Origin: Cycloclasticus sp. symbiont of Poecilosclerida sp. N
GTDB lineage: Bacteria > Pseudomonadota > Gammaproteobacteria > Methylococcales > Cycloclasticaceae
DNA length: 64,000 nt
Assembly (NCBI GenBank): GCA_002101205.1
Contig: LWTM01000073.1
Coordinates: 1 to 64,000 of the forward strand
Direction: 5' to 3'
Shown: positions 57,953 to 64,000 of the stretch, one piece after another
Layout: every line of letters begins with the position of its first letter
How positions within the stretch are numbered: the first letter of the stretch is position 1
The notes under the pieces: generated by a model
The model's database searches: none
What the model saw: the letters and a program-made list of their open reading frames with translations, nothing else
Told to the model about the DNA's origin: nothing
Program-made: the position numbers and the translations under genes

Positions 57953-59062
57953 ATGAAGTATTATGCTGAAATATCAAAAATCGTAAATGGAGCTCTATCT
58001 GGTGACCGAAAACGAGTTACGTCTTACACTGAAATGCTTTGCGAAAAACTGGAAAAAGATGGCGAAGTTATAGCCATTAAGGGATTTAGAGAAAAGCTAT
58101 CAAGTATTAACAGTAGAACTATCGGCGCTCATTCCACATTCTCTCGTCCAGTTCCAGTGGAAAAAGATAATCGTTTTTCATTGGCAGATAAGACGTTTCC
58201 ATCAGTACAGGAGCAAATAGTTTTTTTACCAGCGGATGAGCAAAAGATGATAGGTTCTTTTATTTCCTATATTCATAAAAAAGATCAATTAGATTCAATG
58301 GGCATACCCATTAACTCAACGTTATTACTACACGGTATACCGGGTACTGGTAAAAGTAAGTTAGCAGGAAATCTAGCTGCGAGCTTAGGCTTACCATTAA
58401 TAACAGCAAGAGCCGATGCATTAATATCTTCGTATCTAGGGTCAACATCAAAAAACATACGATCACTATTAGAATACGCCCGCTCTGAGCCATGCGTATT
58501 ATTTTTGGATGAATTTGACGCTATAGCAAAAGCTAGAGACGATAAAAATGAGATTGGTGAATTAAAACGTGTAGTAGTAAGTTTGTTGCAAAACATTGAC
58601 AACCTAGGAGATACAATTCTAGTAGCTGCAACGAATCACGTACACTTATTAGATCCTGCGATAGGAAGGCGATTCCACTATAAAATGGAATTAAAAGCCC
58701 CCACAGAAGAAGTACGCTTCCAGATATTTTCTTCCCTTCTTGATAGATTTTCTTTTAGCAGGGTAGATATTGAGAATTTTGTCACATTGAGTAACGGATT
58801 AACTGGGGCTGAAATCGAAATAGTAACTTTCGATTATTTAAGACAGATGGTTATCAATGAAGATAAAATTGAAGCTATAGAGTTAATACGTAAAACATTA
58901 TTAAGTCGATTTAGTTGGTTAAGTTTTACGATAGAAAATCGCTTTAATAACATGTCAAAATTACACTCAATAGATAAAAAAATATTTAGCAAGAAGTTTA
59001 TAAGTCAACTTTGGAACATGTCACAAAGCAATGTATCTAAGATATTTAAGGAAAATAATTGA
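57953..59062 (+). CDS. ietA: AAA-family ATPase, IetA-like
   Basis: 369 aa; Walker A GIPGTGKSK, Walker B VLFLDEFDAI, ATNHVHLLDPAIGRRF; followed by a subtilase gene. Confidence 0.85.
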   Translation: MKYYAEISKIVNGALSGDRKRVTSYTEMLCEKLEKDGEVIAIKGFREKLSSINSRTIGAHSTFSRPVPVEKDNRFSLADKTFPSVQEQIVFLPADEQKMIGSFISYIHKKDQLDSMGIPINSTLLLHGIPGTGKSKLAGNLAASLGLPLITARADALISSYLGSTSKNIRSLLEYARSEPCVLFLDEFDAIAKARDDKNEIGELKRVVVSLLQNIDNLGDTILVAATNHVHLLDPAIGRRFHYKMELKAPTEEVRFQIFSSLLDRFSFSRVDIENFVTLSNGLTGAEIEIVTFDYLRQMVINEDKIEAIELIRKTLLSRFSWLSFTIENRFNNMSKLHSIDKKIFSKKFISQLWNMSQSNVSKIFKENN

Positions 59063-61233
59063 TGACGGATAATCGCAACCCTATCAAGCATGTAAAATTT
59101 TCAGACGTTGATTATTTTGAGCCAACGGTTCATCCAGGTGGAAATAGCAAGCTCCATAAGCAAGTTACTGATGAGTTTAAAACCGAATTACTGGACTCTA
59201 TCAAAAGCCTTGCTCAGGCCAAAGGCTTTAAGGACAAGGTAACCGTTGCTGTTGTAGAGTTAGAAAGTAAGGCCACGGCTAAAAGTAGTCGTCCTACCGA
59301 AATTTTTAACGATAAGACCTGCCCATTTTTTGGTGATGCTGGATATGCGAAGCACTTAATTCAAATAACGCCAGGCGGCTTATCAAAATTAACTCAAAGA
59401 ATTTCTGAAGCAAGTTCAAAAAAAGCTATAAAGGCTATCTCTGCAATTAAATCCATCAGCCATTATGAAGTCAGTGTAAGTGAAGATACAGATGCGAATT
59501 CATTAAGTGTTAGATTATTTCGCTTTAACTCAGCAGAAAAAAATAGAAAACTAGATAGTGATTTCGAACAGTTCCTGAATAAATTTGACTGCGAATGGAT
59601 AAGGCATTCATCAGATAATGTTCGGCTATACCGAGTCTCAGGTTCGACAAAAAACATGCTAGACTTACTCCCCAAACTTGCTGGCATACAAAGTATTATG
59701 TCAAGCAAATGTATTCAACTAAAGCCCATGAGCCAAGCTCAAACGGGTGTTAACCCCACAATAATGTTACCACCGATTGAGGGCAAAGATTACCCTGTTG
59801 TAGCGGTAGTTGACAGCGGCATTAGCCAGTCCTGCCCTCCTCTTCAATCATGGGTTGTTGCTCGAACTACCTGCATTGCCCCTGCTTATAAAAATGATGC
59901 CCACGGTACTTTTGTTAGTGGGTTAATAACAAATAGCTTTAATTTAAATGGTGCAGATCCTCGTTTTCCACTTTGCCAGTCAAAAATATATAGTGTTGAA
60001 GTATTAGGCGATGACGGTGGTGACCTTTTTGGTATTATTGAAGCAATGTATGAAGTTGCTGAAACGAACCCAAATATTAAAGTATGGAATCTATCACTAG
60101 GTGGCAATGAGCCTGTTTCTAAATCTGAGATTTCAACAATGGCGCTCATGCTTGATGAGTTTCAAGATAAATTCAACTGCTTATGTGTTGTTGCTGCCGG
60201 AAATTATGAAGGAGTTGTTCGTCGAGTGTGGCCGCCAGTGGCTATATTAGAGGATGGAATATCAACACCGGGAGACTCAGTTCGTTGTTTAACTGTTGGC
60301 TCCGTCGCACACATTGATGGATTTGTGAAGAACAAAGAACCATCTCATTTCAGTAGAAAAGGACCAGTATCAAATTATGTTCAAAAACCAGAAGTAGTTC
60401 ATTTTGGTGGCAACATTATGGTAAATGGAGGACAACCAGTTGTACTTGGCGTTAACTCAATTGATGCTAAAGGTAATTCACATCATGATATTGGAACTAG
60501 TTTCTCGACGCCAATAGTATCCTCTATAGCAGCAAACTTATTCGAACAAATAGGGAAAATAGCGACCCCTAGCCTTGTTAAAGCATTAATCATTCACAGT
60601 GCTAACTTGAATGATAATATTCGTGATGAGCATAAACCGTATTATGGGTGGGGTAAGCCACAGGGTAGTGAAGATATATTGGCAGTAAAGGATTATGAAA
60701 GTACTATGGTTTTTGAAGGACAAGCTCAAAAAAGCTTTGAAATTCAAAAACTGCCTTTCCCTATACCAGATTGTTTGAGAACTAATGAAGGAAAAGTTCG
60801 TGCAGAATTTTTTATTACGTTGGTTTATCACCCTGAACTTGATCCACAAAAAGCTTTTGAGTATTGCCAAATGGACGTAAAAGTTGGATTTGGTAAAATT
60901 GATGACGGTAAATTCAATTCACAAGTTCCGCTACAAAATGAGCAGTATTTATTTGAAAGTGATTTAGTGAAAAATGGGGATAAATGGTCTCCAGCAAAGG
61001 TATATAAGAAGCAATTCCCCAATGGAGTCGACATTAAAGACTGGAAGTTAAGAGTCTCAGTAATGGAGAGGGAAGGCTATGAATCTGAAGGGGTATTGAT
61101 TCCATTTACTATTGTATTAACAATGCGAGACCTTGATAAAGAGCAACCAGTTTACAATGAAATGTCACAATTGATGGACCAATATAACTGGGAAGTTTCA
61201 GATCTAGTTATTGATAATGAAATTAAAGTGTAA
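59062..61233 (+). CDS. ietS: S8 subtilisin-like serine protease, IetS-like
   Basis: Triad motifs VVAVVDSGIS, AHGTFVSGLI, GTSFSTPIVSS; start ATG at 59062 overlaps the ietA stop by 1 nt (TGATG). Confidence 0.88.
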   Translation: MTDNRNPIKHVKFSDVDYFEPTVHPGGNSKLHKQVTDEFKTELLDSIKSLAQAKGFKDKVTVAVVELESKATAKSSRPTEIFNDKTCPFFGDAGYAKHLIQITPGGLSKLTQRISEASSKKAIKAISAIKSISHYEVSVSEDTDANSLSVRLFRFNSAEKNRKLDSDFEQFLNKFDCEWIRHSSDNVRLYRVSGSTKNMLDLLPKLAGIQSIMSSKCIQLKPMSQAQTGVNPTIMLPPIEGKDYPVVAVVDSGISQSCPPLQSWVVARTTCIAPAYKNDAHGTFVSGLITNSFNLNGADPRFPLCQSKIYSVEVLGDDGGDLFGIIEAMYEVAETNPNIKVWNLSLGGNEPVSKSEISTMALMLDEFQDKFNCLCVVAAGNYEGVVRRVWPPVAILEDGISTPGDSVRCLTVGSVAHIDGFVKNKEPSHFSRKGPVSNYVQKPEVVHFGGNIMVNGGQPVVLGVNSIDAKGNSHHDIGTSFSTPIVSSIAANLFEQIGKIATPSLVKALIIHSANLNDNIRDEHKPYYGWGKPQGSEDILAVKDYESTMVFEGQAQKSFEIQKLPFPIPDCLRTNEGKVRAEFFITLVYHPELDPQKAFEYCQMDVKVGFGKIDDGKFNSQVPLQNEQYLFESDLVKNGDKWSPAKVYKKQFPNGVDIKDWKLRVSVMEREGYESEGVLIPFTIVLTMRDLDKEQPVYNEMSQLMDQYNWEVSDLVIDNEIKV

Positions 61234-61311
61234 ATTATTTTAGGTAATTATATACTTATGTGACCCAGCATCATGTGGTACAATATCTCCTAGAGTCTTA
61301 GGAGATATACC

Positions 61312-62229
61312 ATGATACAGAATTTTGATAGCTTGTACGACATGATGGAAGCGTTCCCAGATGAGCAATCCTGCATTGACCAACTCCGGTCAATTCGATG
61401 GAAAGAAAGCGCATATTGTCCACATTGCGGCAGTACGAAGGTGTACCATTTCTCTGATAACAAAACACATAAATGCGGCGACTGTCGTAAGCGATTTAGC
61501 ATTAAGGTTGGAACTATCTTTGAAGATAGTAAAATTGCGTTGCGAAAATGGTTTGTTGCTATATACCTTATAACTTCACACAAAAAAGGCATCGCCTCAA
61601 CTCAACTCGCCAAAGATATTAAGGTAACGCAGAAAACAGCATGGTTTATGTTGCAGAGATTGCGCCATGCCAGTCAGACTAGATCGTTTAACCAGCCGCT
61701 TTCTGGGTGCGTTGAAATTGATGAAACATACGTCGGCGGCAAAGAATCAAATAAGCATAAAAACAAAAAGAAAAAGGGAACTCAAGGCAGGAGTACAAAG
61801 ACTAAAACAGCCGTAATAGGAATGGTAGAGCGCGGTGGAAAATTACAGACAAAAAGCGTAACCAACGTTGATTCAAGTTCCATTATCCCAATAATTACAG
61901 ATAATGTAGAGTTTGGAACAAGCATTATGACTGATGAATTTAGGTGTTACCGACAGCTTTCAGACAGATATAATCATCGTTACATTACTCATAGTGTAGG
62001 CGAGTATGTGAACGGTGATATTCACACAAATACAATCGAAGGCGCATGGTCTTTGTTTAAAAGAGGCGTTGTAGGTATTCATCATCATATAAGCCGTAAG
62101 CATTTAGATAAATACTTAGGTGATTTTACATATCGATACAACACGCGTCACCTTGGTGAAGGCGAAAGAGTCAATGACTTTCTGTCCGGTTGTGGTGGAC
62201 GCTTAACATATAGGAAATTAGTATCATGA
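61312..62229 (+). CDS. IS1595-family (ISXO2-like) transposase
   Basis: 305 aa; zinc ribbon CPHCGSTKVYHFSDNKTHKCGDC, VEIDETYVGGKE, IMTDEFRCY, HTNTIEGAWSLFKRG. Confidence 0.93.
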   Translation: MIQNFDSLYDMMEAFPDEQSCIDQLRSIRWKESAYCPHCGSTKVYHFSDNKTHKCGDCRKRFSIKVGTIFEDSKIALRKWFVAIYLITSHKKGIASTQLAKDIKVTQKTAWFMLQRLRHASQTRSFNQPLSGCVEIDETYVGGKESNKHKNKKKKGTQGRSTKTKTAVIGMVERGGKLQTKSVTNVDSSSIIPIITDNVEFGTSIMTDEFRCYRQLSDRYNHRYITHSVGEYVNGDIHTNTIEGAWSLFKRGVVGIHHHISRKHLDKYLGDFTYRYNTRHLGEGERVNDFLSGCGGRLTYRKLVS

Positions 62230-63188
62230 GTGATGAAAAATATGACAAACCTGTGATTCTTGATATGGATTTGGATGAAGCATTAACCAAATTTGCGTCT
62301 GTAACAAAAGAAGAAATACAAGAAAAAGATAATCCACAAGGTGAATTGTTAAATGAAGGTGAAACACAACTTGTTAAATTCAGGGGTAAAGAAGTACGGC
62401 AAGTATTCCATGAAAACGAGTGGTTTTTCTCTGTTGTGGACATTATGGAAGCCGTGGTCGGTACTGATAGACCAAGAAAGTATTGGTCTGACCTAAAGAA
62501 GCAACTTATTGATAAAGAAGGATATTCCGAGTTGTCCGATAAAATCGGACAACTGCCAATGAGGGCTTCTGATGGAAAAAACTATAAAACAGATGTGGTA
62601 AATACTGAAACACTGTTTCGTATCGTACAGTCTATCCCGTCCAAAAAAGTTGAAGCTATAAAGCGCTGGCTTGCGAAAGTTGGCTATGAACGAATCAAGG
62701 AAGAGCAAGACCCTGAAATTGCTATTAAACGGGCAATGCTTACATATAAAGCTCATGGTCACACTGACGAATGGATTAATGCCAGAGTACAATCAATAGT
62801 TAGCAGAAAAATACTCACTCATGAGTGGCAGAAAAGAGGCGTAGAAGGAAAGCAGTACGCATTTTTAACAGACACCATATCTAAAGAAACATTTGGCGTT
62901 AAAACTAAACAGCACAAGCAAATTAAGGGCTTAACAAGCCAAAATCTGCGTGACCACATGTCACCGCTAGAGTTAGCACTAACTATGCTTGGTGAAACGA
63001 CTACAGCGGAAATAGCGAAGAACACAGATGCGCAAGGCTATACGGAAAATGAAAGCGCAGCGCATTCTGGTGGCAAAATTGCAGGTGATGCTAGAAAAAA
63101 TATCGAGCGGAAATTGAACAAAAAAATATTAACAGATGATAATTTTCTGCCTGATAACCCTAAGAAACGCCAACGCAACCTAACTTAA
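62226..63188 (+). CDS. Bro-N domain (antirepressor/DinD-like) passenger protein
   Basis: 320 aa; VKFRGKEVRQVFHENEWFFSVVDIMEAVVGTDRPRKYWSDLKKQL; ATGA overlap with the transposase. Confidence 0.82.
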   Translation: MSDEKYDKPVILDMDLDEALTKFASVTKEEIQEKDNPQGELLNEGETQLVKFRGKEVRQVFHENEWFFSVVDIMEAVVGTDRPRKYWSDLKKQLIDKEGYSELSDKIGQLPMRASDGKNYKTDVVNTETLFRIVQSIPSKKVEAIKRWLAKVGYERIKEEQDPEIAIKRAMLTYKAHGHTDEWINARVQSIVSRKILTHEWQKRGVEGKQYAFLTDTISKETFGVKTKQHKQIKGLTSQNLRDHMSPLELALTMLGETTTAEIAKNTDAQGYTENESAAHSGGKIAGDARKNIERKLNKKILTDDNFLPDNPKKRQRNLT

Positions 63189-63399
63189 AAATAAATCATT
63201 ATTGAACGATGAGTACGTTTTGCCTGGCTGGGTCACATAAGTATATAATTACCTTATTTTAATATGAGACCTTTGCATGACGACACTATTTCGCCTTGCA
63301 TTTAATTGAGGCTCTTTTTTTAACAAAAAAAGGGCTAAAAAGCCCTATTTTCTGCAAATTCATAGTCGTTGGCCTATTTTGTTCCTCTATTTCCATTTT

Positions 63400-64000
63400 T
63401 TAGGCAAAACTTGCCTGCTGAATCGATAACGCTCGTTTAAGGTTATGAGCCACACACATCAGTTCAAAACGGGTGCGATTCCTATTCAGGCCTAAATAGC
63501 GAGCTTTGGCCATTCCGTAATGCTGCTTCAATACACCAAAAACTCGCGCAACTGTGCACCGTACGCCTGAATGGTTTCGCTTCTTTATTGAGTGGCTTGT
63601 TGCGGTAAGCACGCTTGATGATTCTGTTCTCAATATGTCGTTCTGCCAGCCACGCACCATGAGCTTGGCTTTGGTAGGCGCTATCTGCATAGACGGATGT
63701 TTCATCACCACTGAGTAAGCCGATGAAGCAGTTGGAGTCATGGAGGTTTCCAGCCGTGTAATCGGTTGATTTAATGAAGCCATCTTCGTCAACACTCACA
63801 TGGGCTTTATACCCGTAGGTGCTTTTACGCTTCCCATCGGAGCCTGCTTTTACATTCCAGTTTGCTTCGCGGTCTTGAGTCGATTCACCCTGCTTATTTT
63901 TGTTGGGACGACAGTTTTTGCTTCAATCACGCTGGCATCAACGATGCTTACCTCTCCAGACTTAATGTATAGACCTTGATCGCTTAATTGGTGATTTATC
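63400..64000 (-). pseudogene. IS5-family transposase, frameshifted and cut by the window end
   Basis: Reverse frames give SIVDASVIEAK, NCRPNKNKQGESTQDREANWNVKAGSDGKRKSTYGYKAHVSVDEDGF, SVYADSAYQSQAHGAWL and HYGMAKARYLGLNRNRTRFELMCVAHNLKRA; at least two frame changes. Confidence 0.8.

What the first reader, a model, noticed from the sequence alone, without database searches (positions are those of the whole stretch)
61235..63261. IS1595-family element carrying a translationally coupled Bro-N gene
A 2,011-bp unit with perfect 27-bp TIRs and 8-bp TSD TTATTTTA contains a transposase and a Bro-N/antirepressor-like gene joined by an ATGA overlap. Some IS1595 members carry passengers, but a phage-type Bro-N (DinD/antirepressor-like) protein made with the transposase could be a regulator of transposition, a SOS-linked factor or an anti-defence cargo. 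The intact ends indicate recent insertion.
Basis: partly seen in the sequence, partly recalled or inferred. Interest (0 to 1): 0.78.

Follow-up and report, generated by a model that had tools for sequence, protein, structure and literature searches.

The report
Jumping element carrying candidate phage-defence gene
A small, apparently intact jumping element carries, overlapped with its transposase gene, a DNA-binding protein of a predicted anti-phage family; relatives carry other single-gene defences in the same slot, often behind the same short leader peptide, so this family looks like a compact vehicle for phage-defence genes.

Summary
The interpretation needed rework. ORF2 has two parts. Residues 1-45 are a leader shared with small, cargo-less ORF2 proteins of related IS1595 elements: a profile built only from those finds the window protein at E=5e-7. 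In about 640 genomes searched, all 13 strong leader matches lie directly downstream of an IS1595 transposase. Residues 47-315 are a Bro-N/DinD/DdrC-type protein matching the predicted anti-phage family PDC-S13 (E=1.9e-106). Bro-N cargo recurs in other IS1595 elements, including one independent capture. The same leader is fused elsewhere to BstA (a family shown to block phages), RhuM (PDC-S05), KilA-N and Dam. This genome holds three more IS1595 elements carrying PDC-S22, a type IIG restriction enzyme and a fused type II restriction-modification protein. Of 33 cargo proteins at least 15 match known or candidate single-gene defences; seven more match methyltransferases only. Best reading: IS1595 elements acting as carriers of single-gene defence. 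The defence function of this protein, and the leader's job, are untested. IS elements with passengers are known; the shared leader and defence theme appear new.

The parts
61235..61242 (.). left copy of the 8-bp target site duplication TTATTTTA
61243..61269 (+). left terminal inverted repeat GGTAATTATATACTTATGTGACCCAGC
   Evidence: relatives share TATATAC....TGACCCA
61276..61284 (+). extended -10-like TGGTACAAT, putative internal transposase promoter (start of RNA near 61291)
   Evidence: sequence; inference, no good -35
61283..61308 (+). hairpin ATATCTCCTAGAGTCTTAGGAGATAT that pairs the transposase Shine-Dalgarno AGGAG (61300-61304) in read-through RNA
   Evidence: 53-nt RNA -13.7 kcal/mol, z -2.8; RNA starting at 61291 only -1.0; 18 leader-class elements mean z -2.0
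61312..62229 (+). IS1595 transposase, 305 aa, zinc ribbon plus DDE domain (D137, D208, E243 by motif)
62226..62229 (+). ATGA overlap: transposase stop TGA and ORF2 start ATG
   Evidence: same overlap in 36 of 95 related elements
62226..62360 (+). ORF2 leader, aa 1-45 (VILDMDLDEALTKFASVTKEE), shared with cargo-less ORF2s of related IS1595 elements; predicted helix aa 16-33
62361..63188 (+). ORF2 cargo, aa 46-320: Bro-N domain plus DinD/DdrC-type helical C-terminus; PADLOC PDC-S13
   Evidence: Bro-N; DinD and DdrC at E 1e-4; DdrC fold E=1e-7; PDC-S13 E=1.9e-106, aa 47-315
63227..63253 (-). right terminal inverted repeat
63254..63261 (.). right copy of the target site duplication

Best explanation
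This is an IS1595-family insertion sequence with one passenger gene. The passenger slot, the ORF overlapping the transposase stop, is used across the family to carry single-gene anti-phage defences or DNA methyltransferases. In this sub-lineage the slot is often filled only by a small basic accessory protein; here the N-terminal leader of such a protein (aa 1-45) has been fused to a captured Bro-N/DinD/DdrC-type DNA-binding protein of candidate defence family PDC-S13. Likely working: the transposase RNA starts inside the left end, ORF2 is translated by coupling at ATGA, and the cargo binds DNA and interferes with incoming phage DNA, as BstA is thought to do, which sits in the same slot of a sister element. 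The benefit to the host would help the element persist. Shown by sequence: element boundaries, gene overlap, leader homology, cargo families, recurrence. Inferred: coupling, promoter, DNA binding, anti-phage action, selective benefit, direction of the fusion.
For: Element intact. Cargo matches PDC-S13 over exactly the part outside the leader (aa 47-315, E=1.9e-106); the only significant PDB fold is DdrC (E=1e-7). Stand-alone homologues start at residue ~46. A profile from eight cargo-less ORF2s finds, among 24,969 six-frame segments, only IS1595 ORF2s and leader-Bro-N phage genes below E~0.1, the window at 5e-7. Leader profile in 399 + 249 genomes: 13 strong hits, all just downstream of an IS1595 transposase 44-62% identical. 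Same leader on BstA (E=9e-118), RhuM/PDC-S05 (two), KilA-N/PDC-S13, Dam, Bro-N. Own genome: PDC-S22 (2e-112), type IIG RM (6e-167), fused MTase-REase (6e-68) behind three other IS1595 transposases. BstA proteins 62% identical on two distant IS1595 lineages (transposase identity to the window 55% and 41%). Cargo inside TIRs with 8-bp duplications: L025, L026, L347, L348; four identical 1,904-bp IS1595-KilA-N copies in one genome, three with perfect duplications.
Against: PDC families are predictions, mostly untested (PMC12988326); Bro-N and KilA-N proteins also act as phage antirepressors. Eleven of 33 cargo proteins, including six P63C-type, had no PADLOC hit in the rows shown (eight families not shown). 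Seven are lone methyltransferases, not defence by themselves. Many relatives came from viral contigs, which may enrich phage-type genes, and no PADLOC hit rate for random genes was measured as a control. Leader-Bro-N genes without a detected transposase occur in phage contigs (L251, L252, L274). No expression, transposition or phage data.
Confidence: 0.6

Rival explanations
1. Transposition factor: ORF2 serves the element itself. The leader docks on the transposase and the Bro-N/DdrC-like part binds, protects or circularises donor DNA ends or the terminal repeats.
For: Leader tracks the transposase almost perfectly and the two genes overlap; leader elements apart from L026 form one transposase clade (100/99). 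DdrC binds DNA, protects it from nucleases and promotes circularisation of linear DNA (PMC5436757), and is the only significant PDB fold.
Against: Cargo is swapped freely between unrelated domains, and many elements have only a small ORF2, so the Bro-N part cannot be required. The own-genome KilA-N element has no leader.
Confidence: 0.2
2. Neutral or selfish hitchhiker: a phage-type antirepressor or regulatory gene captured by chance, kept only by recent transposition.
For: Bro-N, KilA-N, RhuM and P63C proteins are common in phages; an anti-repressor PHROG matches the RhuM cargo weakly (E=5e-6).
Against: Recurrent cargo of similar kind in many genera, leader-Bro-N conserved at 55-60% over ~300 aa with open frames, and complete restriction-modification cargo.
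Confidence: 0.12
3. Anti-defence or antirepressor gene used by phages and plasmids that carry the element.
For: Related elements sit on viral contigs; Bro-N proteins are often called antirepressors.
Against: The functionally tested cargo in the same slot, BstA, blocks phage replication (PMC8585504); restriction enzymes are defence, not anti-defence; the window element lies beside an IetAS defence pair.
Confidence: 0.06

Closest known systems
IS1595-family elements with passenger genes ('tIS'; e.g. ISNha5 with a transcription regulator, tISCpe8, MTnSag1)
   Same: IS1595 transposase, TIRs, gene not needed for transposition carried inside the ends (PMC11891212; PMC5704250).
   Different: Passenger here is Bro-N/DinD-type, fused to a leader shared with accessory ORF2s of relatives, within a family-wide run of defence cargo; none of the papers found describes this. 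Siguier et al. 2009 could not be read.
PADLOC candidate PDC-S13 and E. coli DinD
   Same: Same Bro-N plus helical C-terminus; full-length match to PDC-S13.
   Different: Homologues seen here are mostly stand-alone genes; this one is carried by an IS and extended by 45 residues. The DinD match is weak (E=2e-4, far below cutoff).
Deinococcus DdrC
   Same: Only significant PDB fold match (E=1e-7); DNA-binding (PMC5436757).
   Different: 12-17% identity, TM 0.4-0.5 with large rmsd; DdrC is a damage-induced chromosomal gene.
BstA abortive-infection protein
   Same: Single-gene DNA-associated phage defence found in the same IS1595 ORF2 slot in L339 and L299.
   Different: Described as prophage-encoded; not detectably homologous to the window cargo beyond the leader.

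Membership tests
IS1595 family insertion sequence | IS1595 zinc ribbon and DDE domain in the transposase | tested here: met
   PF12760, PF12762, NF033547
IS1595 family insertion sequence | terminal inverted repeats with GG..TATATAC-like ends and 8-bp target duplication | tested here: met
IS1595 family insertion sequence | transposes | not testable with these tools
   one copy only; four identical copies of a sister KilA-N element
tIS (IS with passenger gene) | gene unrelated to transposase inside the TIRs | tested here: met
   ORF2 at 62226-63188, inside TIRs
PDC-S13 candidate defence family | full-length profile match | tested here: met
   E=1.9e-106, aa 47-315 to profile 5-274/286
PDC-S13 candidate defence family | protects against phage | not testable with these tools
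   needs plaque assay; family itself is an untested prediction
DinD (DNA damage-inducible protein D) | NCBIfam equivalog cutoff | tested here: not met
   20.7 bits against cutoff 242
DinD (DNA damage-inducible protein D) | LexA-controlled expression | tested here: not met
   no CTGT-N8-ACAG in the window; other LexA types not excluded
leader-bearing IS1595 ORF2 group (defined here) | N-terminal leader matching the cargo-less ORF2 profile, overlapping an IS1595 transposase stop | tested here: met
   E=5e-7 in 24,969 segments; ATGA overlap

The most novel reading that the evidence does not exclude
The leader is an adaptor that binds the IS1595 transposase or the element's ends, physically linking a DNA-binding defence protein to transposition, so that infection or foreign DNA could trigger or target movement of the element, with cargo swapped behind a constant adaptor.
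Probability: 0.13. Interest if true: 0.88.

Novelty: new variant of a known kind. Interest (0 to 1): 0.64.

Why it matters
Defence genes move between genomes, but the vehicles usually discussed are large (phages, plasmids, islands, Tn7-like elements). A 2-kb insertion sequence whose second reading frame is a swappable slot for single-gene defences would be a very small vehicle, would help explain lone defence genes outside islands, and gives a search rule (IS1595 transposase plus overlapping ORF2) for finding untested defence proteins. The conserved leader is a new, testable accessory peptide of an IS family.

Tried and rejected
Viral scan with the single Bro-N protein found nothing; the alignment-based scan worked. 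PDB sequence search gave no hit; fold search did. SOS control: no LexA box. Empty-site test in the genus failed because the flanking IetAS locus is absent from the other species. Bro-N homologues on plasmids were checked: annotated neighbours show no IS1595 transposase; one sits among cas genes. The idea that the leader is strictly tied to IS1595 was softened: leader-Bro-N genes without a detected transposase occur in phage contigs L251, L252, L274, the first two with weaker leaders. The idea that all small ORF2s of IS1595 share one motif was not pursued to significance. Siguier 2009 and the 2014 IS review are not held, so prior description of this subgroup cannot be excluded.

Full report
Observation. 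The element is as described. TIRs of 27 nt at 61243-61269 and 63227-63253 are perfectly complementary and are flanked by TTATTTTA on both sides. ORF1 (61312-62229, 305 aa) is an IS1595 transposase by Pfam and NCBIfam. ORF2 (62226-63188, 320 aa) starts inside the transposase stop (ATGA) and holds a Bro-N domain. Only one copy exists in the 1.9-Mb genome. An intact transposase, perfect ends and a duplication fit a recent insertion, but no empty site was available in the genus.

ORF2 is a fusion. Stand-alone Bro-N/DinD-like proteins from many phyla align from residue ~46 onward; the first 45 residues are extra. That leader (VILDMDLDEALTKFASVTKEE) resembles the N-terminus of the ORF that overlaps the transposase stop in other IS1595 elements. 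To test this without circularity I built a profile from eight small ORF2s that carry no cargo (53-72 aa, polar or basic tail) and searched 24,969 six-frame segments from the window and the fetched loci. Above noise it found only ORF2s of IS1595 elements and leader-Bro-N genes in phage contigs; the window ORF2 scored E=5e-7. A leader profile run over 399 Pseudomonadota genomes and 249 genomes of a second order gave 13 strong hits (E<1e-6, window included, repeats counted once), and each lies directly after an IS1595 transposase 44-62% identical to ours. Of the four weak hits (E 1e-4 to 7e-4) three had none and one had a transposase remnant.

The cargo is swapped. The leader precedes Bro-N/DinD proteins (window, L170, L250), another Bro-N protein (L099), KilA-N (L064), RhuM (L336, L340), Dam (L026), BstA (L339) and unknown cargo (L025). 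On a transposase tree the leader elements apart from L026 form one clade (100/99) and cargo types are scattered in it; for example the small-ORF2 element L337 is sister to the RhuM element L340. Leader-Bro-N proteins group together among 37 homologues (94/87, not decisive), while L273, an IS1595 element with perfect 27-bp TIRs and a leaderless Bro-N passenger, lies elsewhere, so Bro-N was probably captured at least twice.

What the cargo is. Against PADLOC the window ORF2 matches PDC-S13 at E=1.9e-106 over aa 47-315. Three other IS1595 elements of this genome carry PDC-S22 (KilA-N, E=2e-112), a type IIG restriction enzyme-methyltransferase (E=6e-167) and a single polypeptide with type II methyltransferase and restriction domains. 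Elsewhere: BstA twice (L339, L299; 62% identical proteins on distant transposases), PDC-S05 twice, type IIG enzymes, a one-chain HSDR_N-methylase-specificity protein, and lone DNA methyltransferases. Of 33 cargo proteins scanned, at least 15 match known or candidate single-gene defences, seven match methyltransferase models only, and eleven (six P63C-type) show no listed hit. BstA is an experimentally shown phage-defence protein that inhibits phage DNA replication (PMC8585504); PDC families are predictions (PMC12988326).

Mobility with cargo. Several relatives have TIRs and exact 8-bp duplications enclosing leader plus cargo (L025, L026, L347, L348), and one genome has four identical 1,904-bp IS1595-KilA-N copies at different sites, three with perfect duplications.

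Structure and mechanism. An AlphaFold model (mean pLDDT 82) shows a single leader helix (16-33, low confidence), a Bro-N domain (47-136) and a helical C-terminus. The only significant PDB match is Deinococcus DdrC, which binds DNA, protects it from nucleases and promotes circularisation (PMC5436757). A DNA-binding defence effector is the most economical reading; a transposition factor is the main rival. The transposase start lies behind a hairpin that hides its ribosome-binding site in read-through RNA but not in RNA begun at a putative internal start; a similar fold with different sequence is kept in most of 18 relatives (mean z -2.0; related sequences, so not independent). This would damp transposase synthesis when the upstream IetAS operon is read through (inference).

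Limits. Defence activity, coupling, and the leader's role are inferred. Relatives partly come from viral contigs. No background PADLOC rate was measured. The founding IS1595 paper could not be read.

Noticed in passing
57953-61233: IetA/IetS anti-phage pair (AAA ATPase and subtilase; PADLOC E=5e-128 and 8e-247, below the NCBIfam IteA/IteS cutoffs) directly upstream; the element sits just after the IetS stop codon.
   Followed up: partly
61283-61308: Hairpin sequestering the transposase ribosome-binding site, with differing sequence but similar fold in most leader-class relatives.
   Followed up: partly
63220-63249: Outward-facing promoter-like TTGCCT-18-TATAAT at the right end, possibly driving downstream DNA.
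   Followed up: no
63400-64000 (minus strand): Broken IS5-type transposase frames next to the element (from the translated ORFs).
   Followed up: no
L029-L031, L035, L036, L039, L055-L063, L066-L068, L080: Other IS1595 subgroups have different small ORF2s at the same place: an HTH-like protein, an LDAVTxRVLAYRPK protein and an FDxLAxxLVQVPKxE protein with basic tails.
   Followed up: partly
L140, L141, L142, L135:9722-10231 (own genome): Four further Bro-N/DinD-like genes or fragments in the same genome without an IS1595 transposase beside them.
   Followed up: partly
L016 (Arcobacter plasmid pACLO): A Bro-N/DinD relative lies between cas4 and cas1 in a type I-B CRISPR operon.
   Followed up: no
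L329 (element 680-2891): Leader-class IS1595 element that carries, beyond its small ORF2, a separate trypsin-like peptidase gene inside the TIRs (naming by eye).
   Followed up: no
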